Source: Hexactinellida sp. DTS-2022 (lineage: Eukaryota > Porifera > Hexactinellida). Taken from it: a stretch of 64,000 nucleotides of DNA. A program made the translations under genes and the position numbers. Positions 2,916-48,328 of this stretch are shown piece after piece (within the stretch, counting starts at the first letter, position 1; each line of letters opens with the position of its first letter). The notes beneath the pieces are model-generated. The model was not told where the DNA came from and did not search any database. It saw only the letters and a program-made list of their open reading frames with translations. The stretch spans positions 2,418,001-2,482,000 of the forward strand of contig JAPNXP010000009.1 in assembly GCA_028753945.1 (NCBI GenBank), in the 5' to 3' direction.

Positions 2916-3015
2916 ACTGGGCCACTATACTATAGTATAGTCGGCACAGTAATAATAATATTAGAGGCAGTAAGATTAGAACTGGGCCACTATACTATAG
3001 TATAGTCGGCACAGT
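2916..3015. repeat. 35-bp palindrome cluster A (2 units)
   Basis: Two units at 2916-2950 and 2981-3015 run from actgggcc through the perfect 18-bp palindrome actatactatagtatagt to cggcacagt. Spacers are TAA-rich with ggcagtgatt or ggcagtaagatt. The cluster lies between ctacggag and hairpin copy 3. Confidence 0.95.
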
Positions 3016-3022
3016 AAAAAAA

Positions 3023-3136
3023 TCCAAAATTGCAGCTGTGCCGACGCATGTTCCTTTGGTGGCACTATATTTTGGTGGTGGTTTATTGATAGTGCCTCCA
3101 AAGGAACATGCTGTCAGCACTAGCTGCAATTTTGGA
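3023..3136. repeat. Hairpin copy 3
   Basis: Foldback directly after palindrome cluster A. The left arm has the shortened gcagctgtg form while the right arm has an extra base. A long-form right arm follows. Confidence 0.9.
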
Positions 3137-4488
3137 TTTTTTTTCGCCTAGTCATCATCACTATGAAGGTGTTAAATTATTTCAGAAAGGTGTTTCAGTA
3201 GGCAACGACCCTTAGAGTGGTGGAAGTTTCCATTTAGCTCAATTCATTTGAGAGATATTCAAGTTTCAGTAGAATATAATCTGTGATGACTCAGCATTTT
3301 TTAAGTGCGTGTTGGGTATTCACCCAACTCCAACCAACCCATGCGAATTATTTAATTCACAAAATTGTAAAAATACATTTTTTTAACGATGTCATCATCA
3401 CCTCAAGGTGTCAAGACCCACTTGTATAGGTGGTACCTGGCATAAGGACCAATTGATAAATTGAAAGTTTGTTTCTATCTTGTATCATCTCTGAGATTAA
3501 TGAAATTTACCTAATTAGTATAAATATTTAATTAATAAATTAATAATTTAACACCATTATTATGTACAGCAAAATAAATACAGTTTAATTATTTGCACTT
3601 ATTATTAATTTAAATCGAATTTCACTATCATATTTGAATTCAGCGCACTCGATAACCCCAATAATCCAATTGGAAAATTCTATAAGTTAAATACAAAAGG
3701 AATTAATTATAATAAATTACGTCAGTACATTAATTGTGCAAAAAGAATATTCTCGCCGAAATAAATATAATCACTTAATCTGTCGTTGTTGTGGAATGTA
3801 AAATCTTAACGGTTCTATCATAAACCATCTTTAGTTTAATGCCATTCATTCATTACTTAATGATAATAAATTAAATTATTAGTTATTTATTTTAGCAATT
3901 TTATCCACGGTTAGTTGAGTAAAGTCAACAAATTCCTTATATAAATTAATTTAATTTAATCCATTGTATAGTAATGCTACAATTAAATAGAAGCCAGCTG
4001 GAATTTATAAGTTGAATCAATATAATTATCGCAAGTTGAATCAATAGAGTAGGATTTAACAAGTTAAATCAATATAATTATTACAAGTTGAAACAATGGA
4101 ATTAGATTTCACAGTTTTACTGAAATTGAAGTGTGAGTAAACAAAGAAATTTCAACGCCCATTTATGGCAGAAATTGACCCCTTTATGCGAAACTTTCTT
4201 GTCCCATCAGACGCAGAATTCTATGGCGAGTCCAAATGTGAAATAAAATTTGGGGGTTTAGTAAAACAACTTTTGAGTTATGGACCAGACAAAATTTGAA
4301 AGGTGTTAAAGATGTGTCAAAAATTTGTTAATAAAAAATCGTAACCCCAGGTGCAAATTAGACGTCGACTCCGAACCTACATGCCAAGTTTCAGCCCATC
4401 AACCATAAAGCTCTGGCCAGGGCACCGTCTACGGAGAAAAAATAATAATATAAATAATAATAATAATAATAAAGGCAGTGATTCCAAT

Positions 4489-4801
4489 ACTGGGCCACTA
4501 TACTATAGTATAGTCGGCACAGTAATAATAAAAATAAAGGCAGTAAGATTAGAACTGGGCCACTATACTATAGTATAGTCGGCACAGTAATAATAAAAAT
4601 AAAGGCAGTAAGATTAGAACTGGGCCACTATACTATAGTATAGTCGGCACAGTAAAAATAATAAAAATAAAAATAAAGGCAGTAAGATTAGAACTGGGCC
4701 ACTATACTATAGTATAGTCGGCACAGTAATAATAATAATAATATAAATATAGGCAGTGATTCCAATACTGGGCCACTATACTATAGTATAGTCGGCACAG
4801 T
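4489..4801. repeat. 35-bp palindrome cluster B (5 units)
   Basis: Five units at 4489-4523, 4554-4588, 4619-4653, 4693-4727 and 4767-4801. The 35-bp cores are identical by eye while the AT-rich spacers differ in length and sequence, so the core is either recently amplified or held constant. Confidence 0.95.
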
Positions 4802-4821
4802 AATAATAATAATAATAAAAA

Positions 4822-4936
4822 TCCAAAATTGTAGCCTGTGCCGACGCATGTTCCTTTGGTGGCACTATATTTTGTTGGTTGTTTATTGATAGTGCCTCCA
4901 AAGGAACATGCTGTCTGCACAGGCTGCAATTTTGGA
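4822..4936. repeat. Hairpin copy 4
   Basis: Foldback after cluster B. The right arm has gtctgcacagg. It begins a duplicated segment whose other copy starts at hairpin copy 6 (7007). Confidence 0.9.
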
Positions 4937-5691: not shown

Positions 5692-5788
5692 ACTGGGCCA
5701 CTATACTATAGTATAGTCGGCACAGTAATAATAATAAAGGCAGTGATTCCAATACTGGGCCACTATACTATAGTATAGTCGGCACAGT
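5692..5788. repeat. 35-bp palindrome cluster C (2 units)
   Basis: Units at 5692-5726 and 5754-5788. Directly after the second unit the sequence continues as an inverted right arm (ggaatttgttgactcaactc), so this cluster sits at an orientation switch. Confidence 0.95.
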
Positions 5789-6031
5789 AATAAAATAAAA
5801 TAATATAATATAAGGAATTTGTTGACTCAACTCAACCAACCGTGGATAACATTGCTAAAATAAATTACTACTAATATATTTTATTATCAATACAAAATGA
5901 ATGAATGGCAATAAACTCTAGATGGTTTATGATAGAAACAAACTTCAAATCCAACAATCGTTCGTTGAGACTCCGACCACTTAACAAATGGTTCTTCACA
6001 CCTTGGGCGTTGATGACTTTGCGGAAAAAAA

Positions 6032-6146
6032 TCCAAAATTGCACCCTGTGCCGACGCATGTTCCTTTGGTGGCACTATATTTTGTTGGTTGTTTATTGAT
6101 AGTGCCTCCAAAGGAACATGCTGTCGGCGCATGCTGCAATTTTGGA
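6032..6146. repeat. Hairpin copy 5, centre of an inverted duplication
   Basis: The foldback is flanked on its left by a right arm in reverse and on its right by a right arm in direct sense. The whole 5.82-6.36 kb stretch is therefore a larger palindrome centred on the hairpin. Confidence 0.85.
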
Positions 6147-6901: not shown

Positions 6902-6995
6902 ACTGGGCCACTATACTATAGTATAGTCGGCACAGTAATAATAAAGGCAGTGATTCCAATACTGGGCCACTATACTATAGTATAGTCGGCACAGT
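6902..6995. repeat. 35-bp palindrome cluster D (2 units)
   Basis: Units at 6902-6936 and 6961-6995, between ctacggag and hairpin copy 6. Confidence 0.95.
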
Positions 6996-7006
6996 AAAAA
7001 AAAAAA

Positions 7007-7121
7007 TCCAAAATTGTAGCCTGTGCCGACGCATGTTCCTTTGGTGGCACTATATTTTGTTGGTTGTTTATTGATAGTGCCTCCAAAGGAACATGCTGTC
7101 TGCACAGGCTGCAATTTTGGA
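7007..7121. repeat. Hairpin copy 6
   Basis: Nearly identical to copy 4 as part of the 2185-bp-offset duplication. Confidence 0.9.
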
Positions 7122-7876: not shown

Positions 7877-7973
7877 ACTGGGCCACTATACTATAGTATA
7901 GTCGGCACAGTAATAATAATAAAGGCAGTGATTCCAATACTGGGCCACTATACTATAGTATAGTCGGCACAGT
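7877..7973. repeat. 35-bp palindrome cluster E (2 units)
   Basis: Units at 7877-7911 and 7939-7973. This is the duplicate of cluster C and is again followed by an inverted right arm. Confidence 0.95.
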
Positions 7974-8216
7974 AATAAAATAAAATAATATAATATAAGG
8001 AATTTGTTGACTCAACTCAACCAACCGTGGATAACATTGCTAAAATAAATTACTACTAATATATTTTATTATCAATACAAAATGAATGAATGGCAATAAA
8101 CTCTAGATGGTTTATGATAGAAACAAACTTCAAATCCAACAATCGTTCGTTGAGACTCCGACCACTTAACAAATGGTTCTTCACACCTTGGGCGTTGATG
8201 ACTTTGCGGAAAAAAA

Positions 8217-8330
8217 TCCAAAATTGCAGCCCGTGCCGGCAGCGTGTTCCTTTGGAGGCACTATCAATAAACATCACAAAAATATAGTGCCACCAAAGGA
8301 ACATGCGTCGGCGCAGGCTGCAATTTTGGA
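8217..8330. repeat. Hairpin copy 7 (inverted loop)
   Basis: The loop reads in the reverse sense (tcaataaacatcac) relative to copies 1-6. It is followed by the left arm in reverse (ctccgtagcaggtgccctgg). Confidence 0.9.
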
Positions 8331-10320: not shown

Positions 10321-10395
10321 AAACTATATTTTGTTGGTTGTTTATTGATAGTGCCTCCAAAGGAACATGCTGTCGGCGCAGGCTGCAATTTTGGA
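10321..10395. repeat. Half hairpin (copy 9)
   Basis: Only the loop and right arm are present. The left arm is missing and the left-arm spacer joins directly to actatattttgttgg. Confidence 0.85.
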
Positions 10396-11117
10396 TTTTT
10401 TTTAGCCAAGTCATCAACGCCCAAGGTGTGAAGAAGCATTTGTTAATTGATCCGAGTCACAAGGAACGGTAGATAAATTTGAAGTTTGTTTCTATCTTAA
10501 ACCATCTTGAGTTTGATGCCATTCATTCATTATGTATTGATAATAAATTATATTATTAGTTATTTATATTAGCATTGTTATCCACGGTTGAGTTGAATTA
10601 AGTCAACAAATTCCTTATATTATATTATTTAATTTAATCCATTGTATGGTAAATTAAATAGAAGCCAGCTGCAATTTATAAGTTAAATCAATTTAATTAT
10701 CGCAAGTTGAATCAATAGAGTAAGATTTAACAAGTTAAATCAATAGAATTCTTACAAGTTGAAACAATGGAATTTGATTTAACAGTTATACTGAAACTGA
10801 AGTGTGAGTAAACAAAGAAATTTCAACCCCCATTTATGGCAGAAATTAAATAATTTATTGAAAATTTTCTTCACCCATCAGACGCAGAATTTTAAGGTGA
10901 ATCCAAATATAAAATAAAGTTTGGGGGTTTAGTAGAACATATTTTGAGTTAAGGACCAAACAAATTTTGAAAGGTGTTAAAGATGTGTCAAAAATTTGTC
11001 AATAAAAAATTGTAACCCCAGGTGCAAATCAGACGTCGACTCCGAACCAACTTTCCAAGTTTTAGCCCTCTATGTATATAGGTGTGGCCAGGGCACCTGC
11101 TACGGAGAAATAAAAAA

Positions 11118-11233
11118 TCCAAAATTGCAGCCTGCGCCGACAGCATGTTCCTTTGGTGGCACTATATTTTGTTGGTTGTTTATTAATAGTGCCTCCAAAG
11201 GAACATGCTGTCGGCGCAGGCTGCAATTTTGGA
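11118..11233. repeat. Hairpin copy 10, best stem
   Basis: The two 48-nt arms are complementary with a single mismatch (ttggtggc against ttggaggc), around a 20-nt loop. Confidence 0.95.
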
Positions 11234-11781
11234 TTTTTTTTCGCCAAGTCATCAACGCCCAAGGTGTGAAGAAGCATTTGTTAATTGGTCCGGGTCACAA
11301 GGAACGGTAGATAAACTTGAAGTTTGTTTCTATCTTAAACCATCTTGAGTTTGATGCCATTCATTCATTATGTATTGATAATAAATTATATTATTAGTTA
11401 TTTATATTAGCATTGTTATCCACGGTTGAGTTGAATTAAGTCAACAAATTCCTTATATTATATTATTTTATTTAATCCATTGTATGGTAAATTAAATAGA
11501 AGCCAGCTGCAATTTATAAGTTAAATCAATTAAATTATCGCAAGTTGAATCAATAGAGTAAGATTTAACAAGTTAAATCAATATAATTATTACAAGTTGA
11601 AACAATGGAATTAGATTTAACAGTTATACTGAAACTGAAGTGTGAGTAAACAAAGAAATTTCAACCCCCATTTATGGCAGAAATAAAACTCTTTATTGAA
11701 AGTTTTCTTCTCCCATCAGACGCAGAATTTTATGGTGAATCCAAATGTGAAATAAAATTTTGGGGTTTAGTAAAACATATT

Positions 11782-12637
11782 TTGTGTTATGGACCAGACA
11801 AATTTTGAAAGGTGTTAAAGATGTGTCAAGAATTTGTTAATACAAAATCGTAACCCCAGGTGCAAATTAGACGTCGACTCCGAATCTACATGCCAAGTTT
11901 CAGCCCTCTATGTATACAGGTGTGGCCAGGGCACCTGCTACGGAGAAATAATAATAATAATAAAAAAATCCAAAATTGCACCCTGTGCCGACGCATGTTC
12001 CTTTGGTGGCACTATATTTTATTGGTTGGTTATTGATAGTGCCTCCAAAGGAGCATGCTGTCAGCACAGGGTGCAATGTTGGATTTTTTTTCGCCCAGTC
12101 ATCAACGCCCAAGGTGTGAAGAACCATTTGTTAATTGGTCGGAGTTACAAGGAACGGTAGATAAATTTGAAGTTAGTTTCTATCATAAACCATCAAGAGT
12201 TTAATGCCATTCATTCATTATGTATTGATAATAAAATATATTATCAGGAATTTATTTTAGCAATGTTATCCACGGTTGGTTGAGTTGAGTCAACAAATTC
12301 CTTATATTATTATAATTTATTTAATCCATTGTATAGTAATACTAGAATTAAATAGAAGCCAGCTGGAATTCACAAGTTAAATCAATATAATTGTAGCAAG
12401 TTGAAACAATAGTGTAAGATTTAACAACTTAAATCAATATAAATATTACAAGTTGAAACAATGGAATTAGATTTCACAGTTTTACTGAAATTGAAGTGTG
12501 AGTAAACAAAGAAATTTCAACCCCCATTTATGGCAGAAATAAAACTCTTTATTAAAAGTTTTCTTCTCCCATCAGACGCAAAATTTTATGGTGAATCCAA
12601 ATATGAAATAAAATTTGGGGGTTTAGTAAAACAATTT
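11782..12637. repeat. Tandem duplication unit 1 (856 bp)
   Basis: The next 856 bp repeat this segment with almost no change, including hairpin 11. The duplication is much younger than the array around it. Confidence 0.9.
11969..12083. repeat. Hairpin copy 11 (compensated stem)
   Basis: The left arm reads gcaccctgtg and the right arm cacagggtgc, where the common form is gcagcctgtg with cacaggctgc. The change is made on both arms. Confidence 0.9.
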
Positions 12638-13493
12638 TTGTGTTATGGACCAGACAAATTTTGAAAGGTGTTAAAGATGTGTCAAGAATTTGTTAATACA
12701 AAATCGTAACCCCAGGTGCAAATTAGACGTCGACTCCGAATCTACATGCCAAGTTTCAGCCCTCTATGTATACAGGTGTGGCCAGGGCACCTGCTACGGA
12801 GAAATAATAATAATAATAAAAAAATCCAAAATTGCACCCTGTGCCGACGCATGTTCCTTTGGTGGCACTATATTTTATTGGTTGGTTATTGATAGTGCCT
12901 CCAAAGGAGCATGCTGTCAGCACAGGGTGCAATGTTGGATTTTTTTTCGCCCAGTCATCAACGCCCAAGGTGTGAAGAACCATTTGTTAATTGGTCGGAG
13001 TTACAAGGAACGGTAGATAAATTTGAAGTTAGTTTCTATCATAAACCATCAAGAGTTTAATGCCATTCATTCATTATGTATTGATAATAAAATATATTAT
13101 CAGGAATTTATTTTAGCAATGTTATCCACGGTTGGTTGAGTTGAGTCAACAAATTCCTTATATTATTATAATTTATTTAATCCATTGTATAGTAATACTA
13201 GAATTAAATAGAAGCCAGCTGGAATTCACAAGTTAAATCAATATAATTGTAGCAAGTTGAAACAATAGTGTAAGATTTAACAACTTAAATCAATATAAAT
13301 ATTACAAGTTGAAACAATGGAATTAGATTTCACAGTTTTACTGAAATTGAAGTGTGAGTAAACAAAGAAATTTCAACCCCCATTTATGGCAGAAATAAAA
13401 CTCTTTATTAAAAGTTTTCTTCTCCCATCAGACGCAAAATTTTATGGTGAATCCAAATATGAAATAAAATTTGGGGGTTTAGTAAAACAATTT
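12638..13493. repeat. Tandem duplication unit 2 (856 bp)
   Basis: Second copy of the 856-bp unit. The third unit diverges after gtttagtaaaacaattttt, where it switches to the grouping with cluster F. Confidence 0.9.
12825..12939. repeat. Hairpin copy 12
   Basis: Duplicate of copy 11 at +856 bp, with the same compensated stem. Confidence 0.95.
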
Positions 13494-13700
13494 TTGAGTT
13501 ATGGACCAGACAAAATTTGAAAGGTGTTAAAGATGTGTCAAAAATTTCTTAATCAAAAATCGTGACCCCAGGTGCAAATTAGACGGTCCCTCCGCAACTA
13601 CATGCCAAGTTTCAGCCCATCAACTATAAAGCTCTGGCCAGGGCACCGTCTACGGAGAAAAAATAATAATAAAAATAAAAATAAAGGCAGTGATTCCAAT

Positions 13701-13797
13701 ACTGGGCCACTATACTATAGTATAGTCGGCACAGTAATAATAATAAAGGCAGTGATTCTAATACTGGGCCACTATACTATAGTATAGTCGGCACAGT
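13701..13797. repeat. 35-bp palindrome cluster F (2 units)
   Basis: Units at 13701-13735 and 13763-13797. No hairpin follows; the sequence passes straight into an inverted long-form right arm. Everything from here to 18.1 kb is inverted. Confidence 0.95.
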
Positions 13798-14549: not shown

Positions 14550-14664
14550 TCCAAAATTGCAGCCTGCGCCGACAGCATGTTCTTTTGGAGGCACTATCAA
14601 TAAACAACCAACAAAATATAGTGCCACCAAAGGAACATGCGTCGGCACAGGCTGCAATTTTGGA
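14550..14664. repeat. Hairpin copy 13 (inverted)
   Basis: Foldback in reverse sense, with inverted long-form right arm before it and an inverted left arm (ctccgtagacggtgccctgg) after it. Confidence 0.9.
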
Positions 14665-15981
14665 TTTTTATTTTTTTTTATTTTTTTTTTCTCCGTAGAC
14701 GGTGCCCTGGCCAGAGCTTAATTGTTGATGTGCTGAAACTTGGCATGTAGGTGCGATGGGACCGTCTAATTTGCACCTGGGGTTACGATTTTTCGTTAAC
14801 AAATTTTTGACACATCTTTAACACCTTTAAAGATTTGTCTGGTCCATAACTCAAAATATGTTTTACTAAACCCCCAAATTTTATTTCATATTTGGATTCG
14901 CCATAAAATTCTGCGTCTGATGGGAGAATAAATTTTCCAATAAAGGGGTCAATTTCTGCCATAAATGGGGGTTGAAATTTCTTTGTTTACTCACACTTCA
15001 ATTTCAGTAAAGTGTTAAATCTAATTCTATTGTTTCAACTTGTAATAATTATATTGATTTAACTTGTTAAATCCTACTCTAGTGATTCAACTTGCGATAA
15101 TTATATTGATTTAACTTATAAATTCCAGCTGGCTTCTATTTAATTGTAGCATTACTATACAATGGATTAAATTAAATTAATTTATATAAGGAATTTGTTG
15201 ACTTTACTCAACTCACCGTGGATAACATTGCTAAAATAAATAACTAATAATTTAATTTATTATCAATAAGTAATGAATGGCATTAAACTAAAGATGGTTT
15301 ATGATAGAACCGTTAACATTTTACATTCCACAACAACGACAGATAAAGTGATTATATTTATTTCGCGAGAATATTCTTGCACATTTAATGTACTGACGTA
15401 ATTTATTATAATTAATTCCTTTTGTATTTAACTTATAGACGGTTCCAATTGGATTATTGGGGTTATCGTGTGCGCTGAATTCAAATATGATAGTGAAATT
15501 CGATTTAAATTAATAATAAGTGCAAATAATTGAACTTTATTTATTTTGCTGTACATAATAATGATGTTAAATTATTAATTTATTAATTAAATATTTATAC
15601 TAATTAGCTAAATTTCATTAATCTCAGAGATGATACAAGATGGAAACAAACTTCCAATTTATCAATTGATCCCAATGTCACGTAACACCTCTACAAATGG
15701 GTATTGACACCTTGAGGTGATGATGACATCGCAAAAAAAATGTGTTTTTACAATTTTGTTAATTCGATATTTAAAATGGGTTATTTGAAGTTGGGTGATG
15801 ACCCAATACTCACATAAAAAATGCTGATTCATCAGCTATTATATTCTACTCAAACTTGAATATCTCTAAAATGAAGTGAGCTAAATGGAAACTTCCACCA
15901 CTCTAAGGGTCGTTGGCTTCTGAAACACGTTTCTGAAATAATTTGACACCTTCATTGTGATGATAACTTGGCGAAAAAAAA

Positions 15982-16095
15982 TCCAAATTTGCAGCCAGCG
16001 CCGACAGCATGTTCCTTTGTAGGCACTATCAATAAACCACCAACAAAATATAGTGCCAACAAAGGAACATGCGTCGGCACAGCTGCAATTTTGGA
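15982..16095. repeat. Hairpin copy 14 (inverted)
   Basis: Reverse-sense foldback with several mismatches between arms (gccagcgcc against ggcacagc). Confidence 0.9.
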
Positions 16096-16734
16096 TTTTT
16101 TTTTCTCCGTAGACGGTGCCCTGGGCACACCTTTATACATAGAGAGCTGAAACTTGGCATGTAGGTGCGGAGTGCCCTTCTAATTTGCACCTGGGGTTAC
16201 GATTTATGATAAAATAATTTTAACACCTATTTAATCCAATTATGGCTTAGCCAATTAAATTCGAGGGTTGTCCCAGTATGAATTAGCAGCTACCATCCAA
16301 TTAGTATAAAATGATTTTCTATCAATTGTTAGTGTGCATATAGAATGCCTAACCGAGGCTGTAATTTAATTGGTCGAGAGTAAGAAGATTTAACTTATTA
16401 AATCTTTCACTATTGTTTCAACTTGCGATAATTAAATTGATTTAACTTGTGAATTCGAGCTGGCTTCTATTCAATTGACTTATACAATACAATGGATTGA
16501 ATCAAATTAAAAATAATTAAATAGGAATTTGTTGAATTTAAACTCACCTTGGTTAACATTGCTAAAATACTTAAATATTTATATTATTTATTATCTATAC
16601 ATAATCAATGGCAATAAATTCAAGATGGTTTATGATAGAAATAAACTTCAAATTCAACAATAGTTCCTTAGTCCCGTAACAACTTGTTAAATGAGTCTAA
16701 ACACCATGAGGCGTTCATGACATGGCGAAAAAAA

Positions 16735-16847
16735 TCCAAAATTGCAGCTGTGAAGACAGCATATTCCTTTGGAGGCACTATCAATAAAACACCACCAAAA
16801 TATAGTGCCACCAAAGGAACATGCGTCGGCACAGCTGCAATTTTGGA
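16735..16847. repeat. Hairpin copy 15 (inverted, paired deletion)
   Basis: Reverse-sense foldback with the shortened gcagctgtg form on both arms, as in copy 8. Confidence 0.9.
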
Positions 16848-16852
16848 TTTTT

Positions 16853-16887
16853 ACTGTGCCGACTATACTATAGTATAGTGGCCCAGT
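16853..16887. repeat. 35-bp palindrome G (1 unit, inverted)
   Basis: One unit in reverse sense (actgtgcc to ggcccagt), between hairpin 15 and the inverted left arm. Confidence 0.95.
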
Positions 16888-17625
16888 ATTGAAATCACTG
16901 ACTTTATTTTTTTTATTTTTTCTCCGTAGCAGGTGCCCTGGCCACACCTGTATACATTAGGGGCTGAAATTTGGCATGTAGTTGCGGAGTGACCGTCTAA
17001 TTTGCACCTGGGGTTACGATTTTTGATCAAATAATTTTAACACCTATTAAACTAATTATGGCTCATAGCATTAAATAATTAATAGTTAGCTTGATAAATT
17101 TTACATATACCGATAGAGAATTAAATTCTACACCTTTTGGCAATTCGAAAATGTTCAACTTACCCTAGGTTTGTGCCATAAATGGGGTGCCAATCTCCTG
17201 TGTTTCCTCACACTTCAGATTCAGTAAACTGTTAAATCTAATTCTATTGTTTCAACTTGTAATAATTATATTGATTTAACTTGTTAAATCTTAACTCTAT
17301 TGTTTCAACTTGCGATAAATATATTGATTCAACTTATAAATTCCAGCTGGCTTCTATTTAATTGTAGTATCACTAGACAATGAATAAAATAAAATAATAT
17401 AATATAAGGAATTTGTTGACTCAACTCAACCAACCGTGGATAACATTGCTAAAATAAATTACTACTAATATATTTTATTATCAATACAAAATGAATGAAT
17501 GGCAATAAACTCTAGATGGTTTATGATAGAAACAAACTATAAATTTATCTACCGTTCCTTGTGACTCGGACCAGTTAACAAATGGTTCATGACACCTTGA
17601 TGCGTTGATGACTGGGCGAAAAAAA

Positions 17626-17740
17626 TCCAAAATTGCAGCCTGTGCCGATAGCATGTTCCTTTGGAGGCACTATCAATGAACAACCAACAAAAATATAGTG
17701 CCACCAAAGGAACATGGTCGGCACAGGCTTCAATTTTGGA
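17626..17740. repeat. Hairpin copy 16 (inverted)
   Basis: Last foldback of the array, reverse sense, followed by a degraded inverted left arm to about 18.1 kb. Confidence 0.9.
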
Positions 17741-28925: not shown

Positions 28926-29059
28926 ACTGTGCCGAATATACAATAGTATAGTGGCCCAGTTCTAAAATCACTGCCTTTAATATTTTTACTGTGCCGACTA
29001 TACTTTAGTATAGTGGCCCAGTATTGAAATTACTGCCTTTATTACTGTGCCGACTATAC
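28926..29059. repeat. 35-bp palindrome cluster H, left part
   Basis: Inverted units at 28926-28960 and 28988-29022 with a few changes, plus the first half of a third (29044-29059). The LTR element entered this third unit; its other half resumes at 33940. Confidence 0.9.
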
Positions 29060-29225: not shown

Positions 29226-29226
29226 T

Positions 29227-29240
29227 AATAAGAGAATTAA
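29227..29240 (+). promoter_or_regulatory. Putative self-primer binding site
   Basis: The 14 nt aataagagaattaa just inside the LTR are exactly complementary to ttaattctcttatt at 29160-29173 within it. There is no TGG directly after the LTR, as a tRNA primer site would have. Tf1 of fission yeast and its relatives prime from the 5' end of their own transcript in this way. Confidence 0.6.
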
Positions 29241-29244
29241 TCTC

Positions 29245-30110
29245 ATGGCAACGAACTACCCAGTAATTCCCCCTATTGGGAATACGGAGCGCATCTCAGA
29301 CTGGCGCATACTATTCGAAGCCAGTACGGAACAGATCAGGGCTCAAGAGGAAGGAGAGAAGCGAGTCATTCAAATGCTCCCCGCTTACATTAACCGATCA
29401 TTCGCATACCGCGAGTGCGTGCGAGAAATTACGAAAACGGCTCAAACCGCGGTTGAGGCACTAGATGCACTGGCTGCTACGCTTGACCCACCCACGGACC
29501 AATATAGCTCACGACAAGCCCTGTGCAGGCTTACATGGCAGCCCGGGGAGTCTATCGACTGCTTTTTCTTTAAAGTGAAACGTTTGGCCGCCGAATCAGG
29601 CGTAGACTTCAAGTTCGCAGCCTCGCTAGTGGCTTCCCAGCTTCCACGTGACGTAGAGGGAAAAATCAAGGCAACTGTAGTAAGCGCCGATGGCGACCTG
29701 GAGAGCGCCGCAAGTTGTAAGCTGCTTATTGATATAAAGCGTGTGCTAAACGACCGTGGGTATGCACTTGACAAGGGTAACATCGACCTAGAACGGATCG
29801 TTAAGGTCGCGGTAGTATCAGATCCGGTCAGAGCTGATACTCCTGAACCAGCGGGTGACTCACGAGCACCAGATGCACCGGATGACTAGCCACTCACGAG
29901 CAGTCAGTAGCCTATACCCAACACCAAAGAAATTGGAAAAGAGGGACAAGCAGAGCACAACCTCAGCACCGCCAATCTGGATGTTACGTCTGTGGTGAAG
30001 ATCATCTCATGCGCTTCTGCCCACAGAAATGCTGCCCAGTGTGTGGTACCCGTGGACACTCTCTTAGCAACTACCCCCGGAAGAAGCGCGGGCCGAAACA
30101 AAGAATCATG
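29245..30110 (+). pseudogene. gag region of the Ty3-type element
   Basis: The gag frame opens with ATG at 29245, 19 bp past the LTR. It encodes a capsid-like helical protein (segments such as TWQPGESIDCFFFKVKRLA), followed by a zinc-knuckle region with CYVCGEDHLMRFC and CPVCGTRGH. Gag and pol lie in different frames, which is common in the family. In a live element these proteins would form the particle and bind its RNA. Confidence 0.85.
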
Positions 30111-33100: not shown

Positions 33101-33787
33101 ACAATCAACACTCTTCCAAACTCTGGCACAAAACTCACGCCTTTCCATATCATGCATGGTTCCGAACCCATCCCTAACCCGCGACTCCATACAAGCGAAG
33201 GGCAGCCGCGAATGACGCCCGACAGCTGGTTTGAAGAGGCCTCGCATGGGGTGGAACGCTCAGTTGAATCAGCACGCACGAACTTACAAAACTACCAGGA
33301 CACTATGAAGCGGACTTTCGATAAGGATCGGAAGGAAACAACAGTCACGAACGGAGACTATGTGTACCTTCGCAACGATGCGAAGTCTGACAGTCTCGAC
33401 CCACGGTACAATGGACCCTTCCTCGTAGTGAAAGCCGACCCCCCGAACGTCACAGTAGACATGGGCGACGGAAGGAGGAGAACCGTCCATCTTAACCGCT
33501 GTAAGGTAACCTCACGGGATAATAACTCACCTTACCGGACAGTAATCTCGGATGGCACCCAACAAGAGCATCTAGGTACACCTCTATCCGAACCTAACGA
33601 AACCGGTGAAACGAATACAGCCGACATAAGCCAGGAGCAAATTCAGGACCTGCCCATGCCGAGCGCAGATCCCGCGGGATCACCCACAGTCACCCAACAC
33701 GGTCGGGTTATCCAGAAGCCCCTCCGCTACCGGGACACACTAATCGTATGGCCGACGCGAAGGGGAAGTGATGTAAGATATCCATAG
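30110..33787 (+). pseudogene. pol region of the Ty3-type element, broken
   Basis: The protease motif LDSGAGPSVIDLG comes first. Reverse transcriptase follows with FLVDYRGLND, SSLDCASAYWAV and SYVDDVLIHS. RNase H shows QTDASLVAVGGVL and later FLSDHNPLRWL. Integrase shows HPGIKRTLHLL with CKACNVCQ (zinc-binding type), then YDVATLP, LSDQGPNVDG and SSPYHPQ. The C-terminal part continues after the inserted MITE with QAERNIQTVKQTLR and ends in a basic stretch near the 3' LTR. The region is not a single open frame and counts as broken. Confidence 0.9.
32768..32967. mobile_element. hAT MITE inside the integrase region
   Basis: The ends are inverted repeats caggcacgtagct and agctacgtgcctg. A perfect 8-bp duplication, ccctcaag, lies at 32760-32767 and 32968-32975. 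The 200-bp body has G-runs on one side and C-runs on the other. Confidence 0.92.
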
Positions 33788-33935
33788 TTCCTAAGCGGAG
33801 GCGACCACCCACTAAGATATCATTAGCCGTAGTTAGTATTTATTTGTTAGTTTTCTATTAGGTCATTGTAGGCATTCTTAATTCTCTTATTATTTAGCGT
33901 AGCAATAAACTTCTTTAGTTTCCCGGCTCACCACA
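33772..33935 (+). repeat. 3' LTR
   Basis: 164 bp, same ends as the 5' LTR and nearly the same sequence. Confidence 0.9.
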
Positions 33936-33939
33936 ATAC

Positions 33940-34017
33940 TATAGAATAGTGGCCCAGTTCTAATCTTACTGCCTTTATTATTACTGTGCCGGATATACTA
34001 TAGTATAGTGGCCCAGT
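33940..34017. repeat. 35-bp palindrome cluster H, right part
   Basis: The second half of the unit split by the LTR element (33940-33958) and one whole inverted unit at 33983-34017. Confidence 0.9.
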
Positions 34018-39458: not shown

Positions 39459-39573
39459 TCCAAAATTGCAGCCTGTGCCGACGCATGTTCCTTTTGTGGC
39501 ACTATATTTTGGTGGTAGTTTATTGATAGTGCCTCCAATGGAACATGCTGTGGACACAGGCTGCAATTTTGTA
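39459..39573. repeat. Hairpin copy 17
   Basis: Forward foldback; the right arm ends ttttgtatt in place of ttttggatt. The surrounding arms are short and degraded. Confidence 0.9.
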
Positions 39574-39600
39574 TTTTTTTCGGCATGTCATGAACGTCAC

Positions 39601-39865
39601 CAGTGGCAGATCTAGACATGTTGAAAGGGGGGGCTCAAGAAATAATGCGAGCGTAGTGAGCAACTTATAAGGGGGTATGGGGTAACCCCCAGATTTTCTT
39701 TGGGTAATATACACTCAGAAGTCATTTTAAACGCTAATTTCTTTATAATGAGCCATAATTCAAACTTGAGGCTGAAGTTTCTTAATTATTTTGTCAATTT
39801 CAGCTAAATTTCAGTCAATTTCATTTTTTTGAAGGGTGGGCCCAGGCCCCCTGGATCCGCCCCTG
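39601..39865. mobile_element. hAT-like MITE (265 bp)
   Basis: Imperfect inverted ends cagtggcagatctag and ggatccgcccctg. Only gtcac (5 bp) is clearly duplicated at 39596-39600 and 39866-39870. The interior shares a segment with 23660-23700. Confidence 0.7.
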
Positions 39866-40980
39866 GTCACATGGTGTTTACACCCATTTTTCAATTTGTT
39901 ACGGGACAAAGGAACGTTTGATAAATTTCATGCTTATTTCTATTTTAAACCATCTTGAGTTTAAGTTTATATTTTCATTACAAATGCGTTTTAGACCCCC
40001 CTATCACTCTAATAAAATTCGGGCACTAAACACGCACACAGACGAATAGTCATTTAATAGATATTCCAATTCATTAATCCATTGTTTGCATATCAGTCAT
40101 CGTTTTAAAATTGAAATCAGCATACTCGCTTACTTTGAATTACATATGGGATTAAGTTTATATTTCCATTATTAATGCGTTATAAACCCCCCCCCCCCCT
40201 TATACTCTAATACATTTCGGGCACCAAGCACACACAATGTCACACATAGACAAATATTTATACAAATAGATATTCCATCTCATTAATCCATTGTTTGAAT
40301 ATCAGAAATCGTTCTGAAATTGGATAACTGTTGAGTGAAATTGAATTTTCATATAGGAGAAAACTTTAATACAACTATGTATTAGAAATCGATTTATATA
40401 GTAGCAGCTATTGAATCAAATTGAATTATTCATTTACAATATAATACTTTATTGTAACTATGATATCAGAAATTGATTTGTATAGTAATAGCTATTGAAT
40501 GTAAATTAGTTATTCATATATACTAGAATTCTTTATTGTAATTATAATATCAACAATAACTTGAATCGAAATAACACTGAATCTAATTGAATTATTCATA
40601 AATAGTAGATTTTCATCAAAACCACGAAATGATTGCATAATTGAATATTAATGATTTTACGATTTTAGAAAGTTAAGGGTGAATTGTGGCAACTTTTAGC
40701 CTAATTCTCAGGAAAATGAGGACGGATTAATAAAATCGTGAAGAGCTATCAGTTGCAAAATACTTTTCTGAAGCTATCGATTTGAAATTTTTTTAGTTAT
40801 TTCTTAAGGTTTTCCTATGGGACGAAAAAAGCTAAAAGTCCCGTTAAAATTTTTTCCAAGTCGAAATTGAAAAATCGGGCCACGAGATGCACATTAATCA
40901 ACAACCAGACACCTATCCTGAAAATCTCAGAGCTCTAGCACTTATGGTTTAGCCTGGGGAGGCGACACGGAGAAAAAAAA

Positions 40981-41093
40981 TCCAAAATTGCAGCCTGTGC
41001 CGTCGCATGTTCCTCTGGTGGCACTATATTTTTGTGGTGGTTTATTAATAGTGCCTCCAATGGAACATGCTGCTCCACAGGTGCAATTTTGGA
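40981..41093. repeat. Hairpin copy 18
   Basis: Forward foldback with a worn stem (gccgtcgcatg against catgctgctcc). Confidence 0.9.
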
Positions 41094-41210
41094 TTTTTTT
41101 CGACATGTCATCATCACTATGAAGGTGTTAGAGTAATTCAGATAGGTGTTTCGGAATGTAACGACCCTTAGTGAGTTGGAAGTTTCATTTTAGCGCACTT
41201 CATCTCAAAG

Positions 41211-41447
41211 CAGGCCTTCATCTAGCCCTAAGAGATCCGCGCACCCAAAGTGATGTACATTTTACAATCGCGCACCCAAATTTACCAAAAATACGACATT
41301 TATCAAAAAAAAGACCAAAATTAGTATTAAAATACTCTGGGTGCGCACTGCGCACCCAAAATAATTCCAATTTCACGCACCCTTCCAGCAATTTTTCTCG
41401 AAATCACGAACTCCTGGGTGCGCGCCGCGCACCCAGATGAAGGCCTG
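41211..41447. mobile_element. hAT MITE (237 bp) with paralogous empty site
   Basis: Inverted ends caggccttcatct and agatgaaggcctg, perfect 8-bp duplication tctcaaag at 41203-41210 and 41448-41455. The paralogous monomer at 46007-46014 reads tctcaaag once without the element. The body repeats gcgcaccca words. Confidence 0.95.
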
Positions 41448-42838
41448 TCTCAAAGATATTCAAGTTTCAGTGGAAAATAATAGGTGATGACTCAGCATTT
41501 TCTATGTGCGTGTTGGGTGATCACCCACCATCAACCAACCTTTTCGAATTATATATTTCACAAAATTGTGAAAACTAATTTTTTTACGATGTCATCATCA
41601 CCTCAAGGTGTCAAGACACATTTGTAGAGGTGTTATGTGCCATAAGGATCAATTGATAAATTGTAAGTTTGTTTCTATCTTGCATCATCTCTGAGATTAA
41701 TGATATTTAGCTAATTAGTATAAATATTAATTAAATTATTAATAATTTAACACCAATTTGAATTTACTAAGTAAATTAATTTGGACCAAATTTCAATTCC
41801 GCACACTCGATGTTCCCTAATAAACAAATTGGAAGCATCTATATAATATTATGTCAATTATAGACGGAGTTAATTATAATTAATTACATTAGTATATTAA
41901 TATTGTTTAAGAGTCTTCTTGAAGAAGCAATGTATTCACATAATTTGTCGTTTTATGGAATATATAATCATAATTTTCAATTAGAAAATCGAAGCCTATT
42001 CGATCTCACAAGTTGAATCAATATAATTATTACAACTGAAATAAATGCGTTATAAACCCCCCCTTACACTCTAATACATTTCGGGTACCAAGCACACACA
42101 TAGACAAATATTTATACAAAAAGATATTCCATCTCATTAATCCATTGTTTGAATATCAGAAATCGTTCTGAAATTGAATAACTGTTGAGTGAAATTGAAT
42201 TTTCATATAGGAGAAAACTTTAATACAACTATGCATTAGAAACCGATTTATATAGTAGCAGCTATTGAATCAAATTGAATTATTCATATAAATAGAGTAC
42301 TTTATTGTAACTATGATATCAGAAATTGATTTGTATAGTAATAGCTGTTGAATTTAATTAATTATTCATATATACAAGAATTCTTTATTGTAATTATGAT
42401 ATCAACAATAACTTGAATCGAAATAGCATTGAATCTAATTGAATTATTCATAAATAGTAGTTCTTCATCGAAACCACGAAATAATTGCATAACTGAATAT
42501 TAATGAATTTACGATTTTAGATAGTTAAGGGTGAATTGTGGCAACTTTGAGCCTAATTATCAGGAAAATGAGGACGGATTAAAAAAATCGTGAAGAGCTA
42601 TCAGTTGCAAAATACTTTTCTGATACTAATTATTCTAAAAAAATTCTTGTTATTGGATTTATTTTCTTATGGGACAAAAAATGCTAAAAGTCCCGTTAAA
42701 AATTTTCCCAAGTCGAAATTAATAAATCGTGACCCCAGGTGCACATCTGTTACCCATGAGACACATATTGTGAAAATTTTGGCTCTTAGTTAATAAAACT
42801 CTGGTCAGTAGAGAGGCTACGGACCAATAACAATAAAA

Positions 42839-42952
42839 TCCAAAATTGCAGCCTGTGCCGACGCATGTTCCTTTTGTGGCACTATATTTTGGTGGTGGTT
42901 TATTTATAGTGCCTCCAAAGGATCATGCTGTCGTCACAGCTGCAATTTTGGA
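42839..42952. repeat. Hairpin copy 19
   Basis: Forward foldback; the right arm has tcgtcacagctgc against gcagcctgtgccga on the left, so the stem is partly unpaired. Confidence 0.9.
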
Positions 42953-44288
42953 TTTTTTCGCCATCTTATGAACGCCTCATAGTGTTTAGACTCATTTAAC
43001 AAGTTGTATGGTACAAAGGAACGATTGTTGATTTTAAATTATTTCTATCTTGAACCACCTTGAGTTTAATGCCATTCATTCATTATGTATAGATAATAAT
43101 TTATATAAATAGTTAATTATTTGAGCAATGTTATCCACTGTGATTTGAGTTAAGTAAACAAATTCCCAATATAATTTACTTTGCTTTAATCCATTGAATA
43201 TTAATATACTGTTAAAAATTGGAAATAAGCATACTTGTTTACTTAGAATGACAAAAGGATTAAGTTTATATTTCCATTATAAATGCGTTATAATTATCCC
43301 CCCCCTATCACTCTAATACAATTCGGACACCAAACACGCACACAGACGAATAGTCATTTAATAGATATTCCATTTCATTAATCCATTGTTTGTATATCTG
43401 TCATCGTTTTAAAATTGAAATCAGCATACTCGCTTACTTTGAATGATATATTGGGATTAAGTTTATATTTCCATTATAAATGCGTTATAAACCCCCCTTA
43501 CACTCTAATACATTTCGGGCACCAAGCATACACATAGACAAATATTTATACAAATAGATATTCCATCTCATTAATCCATTGTTTGAATATCAGAATCGTT
43601 CTGAAATTGAATAACTGTTGAGTTAAATTGAATTTTCTTATAGGAGAAAACTTTAAATACAACTATTGTATTAGAAATCGATTTATATAGTAGCAGCTAT
43701 TGAATCAAATTGAATTATTCATATACACTAGAATACTTTATTGTAACTATGATATCAGAAATTGATTTGTATAGTAATAGCTATTGAATGTAAATTAACT
43801 ATTCATATATTCTAGAATTCTTTATTGTAATTATGATATCAACAATAACTTCAATCGAAATAACACTGAATCTAATTGAATTATTCATAAATATAGTTAT
43901 TCATTGAAACCACGAAATAATTGCATAATTGAATATTAATGAATTTATGATTTTAGAAAGTTAAGGGTGAATTGTGGCAACTTTGAGCCTAATTATTGGG
44001 AAAATGAGGACAGATTAAAAAAATCGTGAAGAGCTATCAGTTGCAAAATACTTTTCTGATACTAATGATTCTAAATTTTTTCTTGTTATTGCATTTATTT
44101 TCTTATGGGACAAAAAAAGCTAAAAGTCCCGTTAAAAATTTTCCCAAGTCGAAATTAATAAATCGTGACCCCAGGTGCACATCTGTGACCCATGAGACAC
44201 ATATTCTGAAAATTTTGGCTCTTAGTTAATAAAACTCTGGTCAGTAGAGAGGCTACGGACCAATAATAACCAAAGCACTAAGACCAAT

Positions 44289-44516
44289 ACTGGGCCACTA
44301 TACTATAGTATAGTCGGCACAGTAATAATATTAATAACCAAAGCACTAAGACCAATACTGGGCCACTATACTATAGTATAGTCGGCACAGTAATAATAAC
44401 CAAGGCACTAAGACCAATACTGGGCCACTATACTATAGTATAGTCGGCACAGTAATAATATACCAAAGCACTAAGACCAATACTGGGCCACTATACTATA
44501 GTATAGTCGGCACAGT
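44289..44516. repeat. 35-bp palindrome cluster I (4 units)
   Basis: Units at 44289-44323, 44357-44391, 44419-44453 and 44482-44516. Spacers are of the type ccaaagcactaagaccaat, unlike family 1, yet the 35-bp core is unchanged. No hairpin is present here. Confidence 0.95.
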
Positions 44517-44784: not shown

Positions 44785-45784
44785 TCCATTATAAATGCGT
44801 TTTAGACCCCCAAGACACTCTAATACAATTCGGGCACCAAACAAGCACACAAACGAATAATCATAAACTAGAAATTCCATCTCAATTAACCATTGTTTAT
44901 ATATCAGTAATCGTTTTGAAATATAAATCAGCATACTTGTTTACTTAGAATGACATATGGGATTAAATTTATATTTCCATTATTAATGCGTTATAAACCC
45001 CCCTTACACTCTAATACATTTCGGGCACCAAGCACACACATAGACAAATATTTATACTAATAGATATTCCATCTCATTAATCCATTGTTTGAATATCAGA
45101 AATCGTTCTGAAATTGAATAGCTGTTGAGTGAAATTGAATTAACATATAGGAGAAAACTTTAATACAACTATGTATTATAAATTGATTTATATAGTAGCA
45201 GATATTGAATCAAATTGAATTATTCATATAAATAAAGTACTTTAATGTAACTATGATATCAGAAATTGATTTGCATAGTAATAGCTATTGAATGTAAATT
45301 AATTATTCATATATACTAGAATTATTTATTTTAACTATGATATCAGCAATAACTTCAATCGAAATAACACTGAATCAATTGAATTATTCATAAATAGTAG
45401 ATCTTTATCGAAACCACGAAATAATTGCATAATTGAATATTAATGAATTTACGATTTTAGAAAGTTAAGGGTGAATTGTGGCAACTTTGAGCTTAATTAT
45501 CAGGAAAATGAGGACAGATTAAAAGAATCGTGAAGAGCTATCAGTTTCAAAATACTTTTCTGATACTAATGATTCTAAAATTTTTCTTGTTATTGCATTT
45601 ATTTTCTTGTGGGACAAAAAAAGCTAAAAGTCCCGTTAAAATTTTTCCCAAGTCGAAATTGAAAAATCAGGCCACGAAGTGCACATTAATCAACAACCAG
45701 ACACCTATCCTGAAAATTTCAGAGCTCTAGCACTTATGGTTTAGCCTGGGGAGGCGACACGGAAAAAAAAAAAAAAAAAAAAAA

Positions 45785-45897
45785 TCCAAAATTGCAGCCT
45801 GTGCCGTCGCATGTTCCTCTGGTGGCACTATATTTTTGTGGTGGTTTATTAATAGTGCCTCCAATGGAACATGCTGCTCCACAGGTGCAATTTTGGA
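45785..45897. repeat. Hairpin copy 20
   Basis: Near-identical to copy 18, preceded by a run of about 20 A. Confidence 0.9.
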
Positions 45898-46698
45898 TTT
45901 TTTTCGACATGTCATCATCACTATGAAGGTGTTAGAGTAATTCAGATAGGTGTTTCGGAATGTAACGACCCTTAGTGAGTTGGAAGTTTCATTTTAGCTC
46001 ACTTCATCTCAAAGATATTCAAGTTTCAGTGGAAAATAATAGGTGATGACTCAGCATTTTCTATGTGCGTGTTGGGTGATCACCCACCACCAACCAACCC
46101 ATTCGAATTATATATTTCACAAAATTGTGAAAACTAATTTTTTTACGATGTCATCATCACCTCAATGTGTCAAGACACATTTGTAGAGGTGTTATGTGCC
46201 ATAAGGATCAATTGATAAATTGTAAGTTTGTTTCTATCTTGCATCATCTCTGAGATTAATGATATTTAGCTAATTAGTATATTATAAACCCCCCTTACAC
46301 TCTAATACATTTCGGGCACCAAGCACACACATAGACAAATATTTATACTAATAGATATTCCATCTCATTAATCCATTGTTTGAATATCAGAAATCGTTCT
46401 GAAATAAGGACCAATTGATAAATTGAAAGTTTATTTCTATCTTCTATGATCTCAGAGATTTATGATATTTAATTAATTAGTATAAATAATTATTTATATT
46501 ATATATAATTTAGCACCAATTCCAATGTCAACTTATATTTATTAAGTTAAATTATTTTGTCATAAATAATTAATTAATTAATTTGGCTATCAAATTTCTA
46601 TTCCGCACACTCGATAACCCCTAATAAACAAATTGGAAGCATCTATATAAGTCATATACTGACTGAATTAATTATAATTAATTACGTCAGTATATTAA

Positions 46699-47055
46699 GG
46701 CCGTATAAAATAAATAACTTGTTTATCATCCCAGCCCGCCCCAATTTTTACTATCCGTCCGGATCTATTTTATTATTATCTTATGAACATAATCGTACAA
46801 AATATATGTAATAAACTTGTGTAAAGTACCTACTATGCATATATTTCTAATAAGTCCTATATTTTAGAGCATTACTTTAATTATTTGGGCATTGTAATGT
46901 TATTTTCTAATTAAATTAAATATTTATATTTATTTTTGGCATAAGATGATGTTATTTGTATATTAATGAAATAAAAAATAAAAATAAATCCCGTCCGCCG
47001 TCCTAATTTTCTCGAAAAATATGGATGATAAACAAGTAATTTATTTTATGTGGCC
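46699..47055. mobile_element. Harbinger-type MITE (357 bp)
   Basis: Inverted ends of about 36 bp beginning ggccgtataaaataaataac and closing ttatttta plus tgtggcc. A TAA stands on each side (46696-46698 and 47056-47058). Three-base TWA duplications and GG-starting ends fit PIF/Harbinger. Other monomers give the empty site. Confidence 0.85.
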
Positions 47056-48027
47056 TAACAGTGCAATAATATTCTCGCAGAATTAAATATGATCACATAA
47101 TCTGTCGTTGTTATGAAATATATAATCTTTTTTTTCAATTAGAAAATCGAAGCCTACTCGATCTCACAAGTTGAATCAATATAATTATTACAACTTGAAA
47201 TAAATGCGTTATATACCCCCCCTAAGTTAGCACTCTAATACATTTCGGGCACCAAGCACACACATAGACAAATATTTATACTAATAGATATTCCATCTCA
47301 TTAATCCATTGTTTGAATATCAGAAATCGTTCTGAAATTGATTAACTGTTTGAGTGAAATTGAATTTTCATATAGGAGAAAACTTTAATACAACTATGTA
47401 TTAGAAATCGATTTATATAGTAGCAGCTATTGAATCAAATTGAATTATTCATTTACAATATAATACTTTATTGTAACTATCTATGATATCAGAAATTGAT
47501 TTGTATACTAATAGCTATTGAATGTAAATTAATTATTCATAAATACTAGAATTCTTTATTGTGATTATAATATCAACAATAACTTTAATCGAAATAACAC
47601 TGAATCAATTGAATTATTCATAAATAGTAGATCTTCATCGAAACCACGAAATACTTGCATAATTGAATATTAATGAATTTACGATTTTAGAAAGTTAAGG
47701 GTGAATTGTGGCAACTTTGAGCCTAATTATCAGGATAATGTGGACGAATTTTAAAAATCGTGAAGAGCTATCAGTTCCAAAATAATTTTCTGAAGCTAAT
47801 GATTTGAATTTTTTTCTTGTTATTGCTTTTATTTTCTTATGGGACAAAAAAAGCTTAAAAGTCCCGTTAAAAATTTTCCCAAGTCGAAATTGAAAAATCA
47901 GGCCACGAAGTGCACATTAATCAACAACCAGACACCTATCCTGAAAATCTCAGAGCTCTAGCACTTAAGGTTTAGCCTGGGGAGGCGACACGGAGAAAAA
48001 AATATAATCCAAGGCACTAAGACCAAT

Positions 48028-48328
48028 ACTGGGCCACTATACTATAGTATAGTCGGCACAGTAAAAATCCAAGGCAGTAAGATTAGAACTGGGCCACTAT
48101 ACTATAGTATAGTCGGCACAGTAACAAAAACAAACCAAAGCACTAAGACCAATACTGGGCCACTATACTATAGTATAGTCGGCACAGTAAAAAACAAAAA
48201 CAAACCAAAGCACTAAGACCAATACTGGGCCACTATACTATAGTATAGTCGGCACAGTAAAAAACAAAAACAAACCAAAGCACTAAGACCAATACTGGGC
48301 CACTATACTATAGTATAGTCGGCACAGT
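48028..48328. repeat. 35-bp palindrome cluster J (5 units)
   Basis: Units at 48028-48062, 48088-48122, 48154-48188, 48224-48258 and 48294-48328. The last spacers are a precise repeat (aaaaacaaaaacaaacc), so the array grew by whole-unit duplication. Confidence 0.95.

What the first reader, a model, noticed from the sequence alone, without database searches (positions are those of the whole stretch)
2916..48328. A 35-bp palindrome that stays constant while everything round it changes
About 27 units in ten clusters carry the same 35 bp around actatactatagtatagt, in two subfamilies with unrelated spacers. Most cores look identical, while the neighbouring arms differ freely. The units always sit between ctacggag and the hairpin, or replace the hairpin. 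This could be a protein-binding site, a miniature mobile unit, or a recombination hotspot.
Basis: seen in the sequence. Interest (0 to 1): 0.7.

Follow-up and report, generated by a model that had tools for sequence, protein, structure and literature searches.

The report
Stacked start sites of rolling-circle transposons
The repeated 35-letter palindrome is the left end of a very abundant family of rolling-circle jumping genes (Helentrons and their small derivatives), and it probably occurs in stacks because new copies keep landing just inside the end of older copies and push the old ends outwards.

Summary
In detail: 25 exact and 4 near-exact cores lie in the window against 0.02 expected, and 6,767 35-mers with up to 3 mismatches in the 112-Mb genome. 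The palindrome is the 5' terminus of a Helentron family (rolling-circle transposons with a Rep/helicase-endonuclease protein) and its non-coding derivatives (HINEs). One open-frame Helentron carries three units 5' and the hairpin 3'. Empty sites of one copy show insertion into a T-run, with the palindrome at the boundary and no duplication beyond Ts. Of 108 body ends scored, those without a palindrome abut a neighbour's hairpin, bar one rearranged junction (hand-checked). Neighbours are mostly unrelated copies, and unit type follows body family. So arrays probably arise mainly by nested self-insertion into the T-rich gap between palindrome and body, stacking old termini outside. The core is constant because the shared protein must recognise it (inferred) and copies are young. 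This is a large new variant of a known kind; the mechanism was proposed before for fungal elements.

The parts
4489..4801 (-). stack of 5 5'-terminal palindromes
5692..5788 (-). stack of 2 palindromes, next to an inverted fragment of an A body (from 5789 to about 6018)
6902..6995 (-). stack of 2 palindromes
7877..7973 (-). stack of 2 palindromes (local duplication of the 5692-5788 region, 97% identical upstream)
13701..13797 (-). stack of 2 palindromes at the outer 5' end of a run of A copies
16853..16887 (+). single palindrome between two + strand A copies
28926..29022 (+). 2 palindromes, outer part of a stack split by a Gypsy element
33936..34017 (+). rest of that stack: half of the split unit and one whole unit, next to a B-type body
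44289..44516 (-). stack of 4 palindromes (C-type modules)
48028..48328 (-). stack of 5 palindromes (C- and B-type modules)
411..525 (-). 3' terminal hairpin (115 bp) of a copy; further hairpins of - strand copies start at 2035, 3023, 4822, 6032, 7007, 8898, 10323 (partial), 11118, 11969, 12825, 39459, 40981, 42839, 45785
2035..2866 (-). complete A-short HINE copy (3' hairpin to CTACGGAG, 832 bp); palindromes at 2916-3015
3023..4436 (-). complete A-long HINE copy (1,414 bp); palindromes at 4489-4801
10323..13657 (-). four A copies (the first with a truncated hairpin) in head-to-tail order joined by junctions without palindromes; stack at 13701-13797
14550..17740 (+). run of A copies on the other strand (hairpins 14550-14664, 15982-16095, 16735-16847, 17626-17740)
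39459..44260 (-). run of C- and B-type copies ending in the stack 44289-44516
45785..47994 (-). C-type copy ending in the stack 48028-48328

Best explanation
The palindrome is the 5' terminus of a Helentron family and of its non-autonomous derivatives (HINEs). In the element's own direction a copy reads: [35-bp palindrome + 18-bp module + T-rich spacer] repeated 1-10 times, CTCCGTAG, body (or the Rep/helicase/endonuclease genes in the autonomous copies), then a ~115-bp hairpin followed by Ts at the 3' end. SHOWN: this structure, both ends shared with one open-frame autonomous copy, and T-run insertion with the palindrome at the boundary for one copy. SUPPORTED, NOT PROVEN: most head-to-tail arrays are nested self-insertions; a new copy lands in the T-rich spacer between an older copy's palindrome and its body, so the new 3' hairpin abuts the old body and the old palindrome is pushed outside the new one. 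This explains junctions without palindromes, stacks at outer ends, mixed families and one-way orientation. INFERRED: the Rep protein recognises and nicks at the palindrome and can start at an outer one, so copies carrying several starts move as such; the core is constant because it must be recognised in trans, plus recent insertion, not because of selection on resident copies.
For: 1) Partner: Pfam Helitron_like_N in 151 places (lower bound), 20 listed matches of one score group with open frames of 1,652-1,709 codons. The one frame scanned (L041, 1,704 codons) has Helitron_like_N 1e-28, PIF1 2.8e-24 and Exo_endo_phos 4e-7. 2) Shared ends: the copy at C1:5540541 (frame 1,700 codons) has three palindromes plus CTCCGTAG at 5' and the hairpin at 3' (the middle was not read); the same 3' hairpin in 3 of the 4 Helentrons whose 3' side I fetched. 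3) Insertion: joined flanks of the L014 copy match 16 uninterrupted places at 88-97% (18 matches, the other two being its own flanks); the two I read have T6, the filled site T3-palindrome...hairpin-T6. A ~7-kb array (L022, at least 5 bodies, 6 palindromes) sits at one place: 60 of 66 matches of its joined flanks span the junction, at 75-95% identity; the host repeat is often present as adjacent inverted pairs, so these are not 60 independent sites. 4) Fixed lengths: 78 of 88 near-complete hairpins are followed by a body end; 62 of the 78 lie 814-874, 1,176-1,201 or 1,253-1,438 bp away, 12 more than 1,500. 5) Of 108 body ends (window, L009-L028, L041/L042), 54 have no palindrome and abut a neighbour's hairpin, 17 have palindromes then a hairpin, 30 have palindromes then something else, 7 were scored 'no palindrome, something else'. 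By hand, 3 of those 7 have palindromes behind a long spacer, 2 abut a hairpin, 1 is split by another element, 1 is a rearranged junction. Fisher on 56/1 against 17/34: p = 3e-14. 6) Unit type next to a body follows the body family: A bodies 31 of 31 classifiable (1 unclassified), B/C bodies 17 of 17 after one misclassed body (L025) is set aside by hand; Fisher p = 2e-13. The grouping of types was made after seeing the data and does not separate B from C. 7) Neighbours are not sisters: nearest relative is an adjacent copy in 4 of 66; same-type neighbours differ by a median 11.5% (n = 17), same-type copies from other loci by 12.0% (n = 689); 17 of 37 neighbour pairs are of one type, 13.0 expected, P = 0.10. 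8) Longer runs without internal palindromes carry more palindromes: Spearman 0.39, p = 0.005, n = 50 stacks, some runs cut by locus edges.
Against: A strict one-palindrome-per-copy rule fails: runs of a single body carry 1-5 units, and L009 has at least 6 bodies but 4 units, so losses, slippage, unequal exchange or remobilised multi-end copies must also act. The predicted mirror order of unit types is clear in only two mixed arrays (L020, L022) and is violated in others (L025 minus strand, L009). Of 4 Helentrons whose 5' side was fetched, one (L049) shows palindromes; one (L041/L042) has none directly at its 5' end and abuts a neighbour's hairpin; two (L043/L047 and L045) did not show the 5' end in the stretches fetched. 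L046 did not show the hairpin. The empty-site test found no uninterrupted paralogue for one further copy and none spanning the junction for a second array. Sampling is 20 stretches of C1 picked from the first 100 places listed, plus the window and one Helentron locus. No biochemistry.
Confidence: 0.9

Rival explanations
1. Stacks and arrays are made by rolling-circle read-through of one element (tandem concatemers), as described for plant centromeric Helitrons with several 5' ends and one 3' end.
For: Known for Helitrons: reviewed in passages I read of PMC12628747. Some adjacent copies are alike (lowest adjacent divergence 2.8%) and the region of window 7877-7973 duplicates that of 5692-5788. 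Same-type neighbours are slightly in excess (17 of 37, 13.0 expected, P = 0.10).
Against: Neighbours are mostly not each other's nearest relatives and often of another type; bodies and 3' hairpins inside arrays are mostly complete; unit types differ within several stacks.
Confidence: 0.12
2. The palindrome is an independent miniature mobile unit or minisatellite that hitch-hikes in T-rich tracts of other repeats.
For: Units occur in head-to-tail stacks with microsatellite-like linkers; unit number varies from 1 to 10; 11 of the 61 stacks had no recognised body next to them (several are broken by other insertions).
Against: Adjacent module type follows body family; a unit is present at every recognised body end that does not abut a hairpin, bar one rearranged junction; an open-frame autonomous copy carries it.
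Confidence: 0.03
3. Retroposon (LINE/SINE-like) with a structured, repeated 3' tail.
Against: Fixed element lengths rather than graded truncation; no duplication at the empty site beyond Ts; the partner protein is a Rep/helicase.
Confidence: 0.01
4. Resident copies are kept identical by selection for a host function or by gene conversion between palindrome arms.
For: 1.08% divergence against 1.9-17.8% in body blocks.
Against: The adjacent non-palindromic module shows a similar private rate, 1.65%; the imperfections of the palindrome (a G-A mismatch and an extra C) persist in 159-161 of 161 copies per site, which arm-to-arm conversion would erase.
Confidence: 0.05

Closest known systems
Helentrons and HINEs/DINE-1 (Thomas, Vadnagara and Pritham 2014, PMC4067079; passages read)
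   Same: Rep/helicase with C-terminal endonuclease; non-coding derivatives outnumber the autonomous copy; palindromic terminal repeat near the 5' end; hairpin at the 3' end; T-rich target, no duplication, variable number of Ts at the boundary.
   Different: Here the 5' palindrome is 35 bp (12-15 bp in the mite families), touches the host T-run directly in the one copy tested and is stacked 1-10 times; the 3' hairpin is ~115 bp; the shared inverted repeat is 10 bp (CTGTGCCGAC/GTCGGCACAG, seen by eye).
FoHeli elements of Fusarium oxysporum (2016, PMC5148889; passages read)
   Same: Helitron2 group; a number of copies with several 5' ends and a single 3' end; the authors propose self-insertion followed by mobilisation from the outermost 5' end, the same mechanism as proposed here.
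   Different: There: fungal elements without an endonuclease, duplicated 5' stretches typically under 200 bp, one nested example. Here: thousands of termini in one genome, stacks up to 10, and tests against concatemer formation.
Cg_HINE elements of Crassostrea gigas (PMC7492417; passages read)
   Same: HINEs carrying tandem arrays, T-rich targets, no target duplication.
   Different: Their arrays are satellite-like repeats in the middle, flanked by both modules; here the array is the 5' terminus itself.
Canonical Helitrons (Helitron1; features as given in PMC5148889)
   Same: Rolling-circle Rep/helicase and 3' hairpin.
   Different: No 5' TC and 3' CTRR, no A/T target; an endonuclease domain is present.

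Membership tests
Helentron / HINE | Partner protein with Rep (Helitron_like_N), PIF1-type helicase and C-terminal endonuclease | tested here: met
   (one copy scanned)
Helentron / HINE | Non-coding copies share both ends with the autonomous copy | tested here: met
   both ends in one Helentron (C1:5540541); 3' hairpin in 3 of 4 fetched; palindromes in 1 of 4 5' sides fetched
Helentron / HINE | Insertion in T-rich DNA, no target-site duplication, variable number of boundary Ts | tested here: met
   for one copy (two empty sites read); for one array, junctions not read; two searches gave no junction-spanning site
Helentron / HINE | Subterminal inverted repeat near both ends (12-15 bp in mites, 13 bp in flies) | tested here: inconclusive
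   10 bp CTGTGCCGAC / GTCGGCACAG seen by eye in the 5' unit and 3' hairpin (sequences); shorter than published and inside the hairpin
Helentron / HINE | Hairpin near the 3' end | tested here: met
   -56.4 kcal/mol, z -16.3 for one typical hairpin; 99 hits in 264 kb, 82 full
Helentron / HINE | Moved by a rolling-circle mechanism through a circle | not testable with these tools
   needs experiment
Canonical Helitron (Helitron1) | Insertion between A and T, 5' TC and 3' CTRR | tested here: not met
   T-run target, 5' ACTGTGCC, 3' ...GGATTTTTT (one copy)
LINE/SINE retroposon | Variable 5' truncation, target-site duplication, reverse transcriptase partner | tested here: not met

The most novel reading that the evidence does not exclude
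The T-rich gap just inside the terminal palindrome is a specific self-target: the transposition complex brings new copies to the ends of old ones, building batteries of alternative replication starts that raise the chance of being mobilised and leave a readable, layered record of successive insertions. In the sample 56 of 108 body ends abut a neighbour's hairpin without a palindrome, read as a hit in a gap of median 20 bp. At most 12 of 78 bodies look interrupted (22 of 88 if hairpins with no end found are counted), although each intact body has on average 2.6 same-strand runs of five or more Ts: roughly a 5- to 9-fold excess per T-run.
Probability: 0.3. Interest if true: 0.6.

Novelty: new variant of a known kind. 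Interest (0 to 1): 0.45.

Why it matters
It gives thousands of natural examples, within one genome that also holds open-frame autonomous copies, of multi-start Helentrons that had been proposed from a number of fungal cases. Because each end can be typed and its neighbours compared, start-site choice, self-targeting and array growth become testable. It also warns annotators that such arrays look like satellites or independent miniature elements when read from the wrong end. For a specialist this is a striking scale and pattern rather than a new principle.

Tried and rejected
Retroposon tail idea: pursued and dropped when lengths proved fixed and the partner proved to be a Helentron. Rfam and tRNA scans of the window: nothing. 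The core as text: in no held paper. Searches of the held library for stacked or nested Helitron/Helentron ends led to two close precedents, the Fusarium paper and the plant concatemers reviewed in PMC12628747; I do not claim that nothing else is in print. Organism: Xenoturbella bocki was guessed from memory because it has ~111 Mb in 18 scaffolds; passages of its genome paper give 43% GC and 72 Mb in the 18 large scaffolds, which does not clearly fit; not tested further, organism left open. A COX1 search found nothing. Strict one-unit-per-copy rule: holds in several arrays, fails in others. An OTU protease domain was read by eye after the endonuclease but Pfam did not report it.
Full report
Observation. 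The window holds 29 matches to the 18-bp core with up to 3 mismatches, 25 of them exact, where shuffled sequence gives 0.02. The window is contig C18:2418001-2482000 of a genome of 112,398,167 bp in 18 contigs, which holds 5,702 exact cores, 4,891 exact 35-mers and 6,767 35-mers with up to 3 mismatches; A-type body ends number 3,245 with up to 2 mismatches (1,614 + 1,631). I read 20 stretches of 10 kb of contig C1, chosen from the first 100 places listed (fetched), together with the window: 163 units in 264 kb, 122 of them exact, with the 161 best falling in 59 arrays of 1-7. With broken units and one further locus counted, stacks reach 10.

Anatomy. Of 88 near-complete hairpins, 78 lead to a body end; 62 of these lie 814-874, 1,176-1,201 or 1,253-1,438 bp away, 12 more than 1,500. 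Three body families (A, B, C) share the hairpin and the palindromes. So these are elements with two defined ends, in head-to-tail arrays that mix families.

Identity. The genome has 151 places with the Helitron Rep domain as a lower bound, and 20 listed ones of one score group have open frames of 1,652-1,709 codons. One of them, L041, carries Rep, PIF1 helicase and an exo/endonuclease domain and lies inside an element with A-family sequence at its 5' side and the hairpin at its 3' side. A second (C1:5540541) starts with three palindromes and CTCCGTAG, runs into the start of the same coding region (94.8% identical to the L041 locus over 1,049 bp) and has the hairpin at its 3' side; the middle was not read. 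A third has the same 3' hairpin, and in a fourth the hairpin was not in the stretch fetched. Two further 5' sides were fetched without reaching a recognisable end. Read in the element's own direction the palindrome is therefore the 5' end. These features match Helentrons and HINEs as described in passages I read of PMC4067079 and PMC7492417.

Boundary. The flanks of the single-unit B copy in L014, joined, match 16 uninterrupted places. Two of them, read in full, have six Ts at the site; the filled site has three Ts, then ACTGTGCC..., and at the other end ...GGA followed by six Ts. The palindrome thus touches host DNA, and no duplication beyond Ts is seen. For the L022 array, 60 of 66 matches to its joined flanks span the junction, though many are adjacent inverted pairs of one host repeat and not independent sites, so about 7 kb of bodies and palindromes sit at one place. 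A further single copy gave only its own flanks, and a second array gave no junction-spanning match among 11.

Why stacks. I scored 108 body ends in the window, L009-L028 and L041/L042: 54 have no palindrome and abut a neighbour's hairpin, 17 have palindromes and then a hairpin, 30 have palindromes and then something else, 7 were scored as no palindrome and something else. By hand, 3 of the 7 do have palindromes beyond the script's limit, 2 abut a hairpin (one truncated), 1 is split by another element with palindromes beyond it, and 1 is a rearranged junction. After that check no end that plainly borders host DNA lacks a palindrome (56/1 against 17/34, p = 3e-14); 'something else' includes inverted or truncated copies as well as host DNA. 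The simplest account is that a new copy inserts into the T-rich spacer of an older one: its hairpin then abuts the old body, and the old palindrome is left outside the new one. T-run targeting on one strand also explains the common orientation. The expected signs are present: neighbours are mostly not sisters (nearest relative adjacent in 4 of 66; 11.5% against 12.0% median divergence); the palindrome next to a body is of that body's type (31 of 31 A, 17 of 17 B/C after one misclassed body, types grouped after seeing the data); and longer runs carry more palindromes (Spearman 0.39, p = 0.005, n = 50). Against it: runs of one body with 2-5 palindromes, L009 with fewer palindromes than bodies, and mirror order clear in only two mixed arrays. 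Copies with several palindromes fit the proposal, made for Fusarium elements in passages I read of PMC5148889, that transposition can start at the outermost 5' end and carry both. The tandem-concatemer model reviewed in PMC12628747 (passages) may add a minority.

Why constant. The 35-mer differs from consensus at 1.08% of sites across all families; the hairpin by 2.5-3.9% and bodies by 1.9-17.8% per 60-bp block within families. The neighbouring 18-bp module has 1.65% private changes once its nine recurrent types are allowed for. So resident copies decay at similar, low rates, and the contrast with the bodies reflects, on this reading, differences between source copies whose ends had to stay recognisable. 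The recognition itself is inferred. As single-stranded DNA the palindrome folds at -8.0 kcal/mol (z -4.1) and a typical hairpin at -56.4 (z -16.3).

Self-targeting. In this sample 56 of 108 body ends look hit in their spacer (median 20 bp; 35 of 52 surviving spacers hold a run of five or more Ts). At most 12 of 78 bodies look interrupted, or 22 of 88 if the hairpins with no end found are counted, although each intact body has on average 2.6 same-strand runs of five or more Ts (61 bodies). That is a 5- to 9-fold excess per T-run. By extrapolation from 31 kb of the window there are about 456,000 such runs in the genome. The sample was chosen by the presence of the core and the figures are rough.

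Verdict. A large, clear case of Helentron/HINE 5' termini, stacked most probably by self-insertion: a new variant of a known kind, with a mechanism already proposed for fungal examples. The organism was not identified.

Noticed in passing
window 29060-33935: A Gypsy-type LTR element (LTRs about 95% alike over 148 bp) has inserted into the centre of one palindrome; ATAC is repeated on both sides.
   Followed up: partly
L024 about 1,986-3,043; L011 about 147-1,182: Other elements (ends CAGTGGCGCCC and CAGGGGCGTCGATT, seen by eye) have also inserted inside palindromes; in L024 CTATA is repeated on both sides. The palindrome may be an attractive target.
   Followed up: no
window 5789-6032, 7974-8217, just before 8898: Fragments of A bodies in inverted orientation meet at the 3' hairpin, giving large inverted repeats centred on the hairpin, as if synthesis had turned back there.
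   Followed up: no
genome: Besides the Helentron group there is a second group of Helitron_like_N matches with stronger scores and open frames up to 1,930 codons; its ends were not examined beyond a pattern scan of 12 loci that found no palindrome or hairpin.
   Followed up: no
L041:2000-2875: An open frame of the Helentron ahead of the Rep frame matches DUF6570 (1e-15).
   Followed up: no
   Followed up: no
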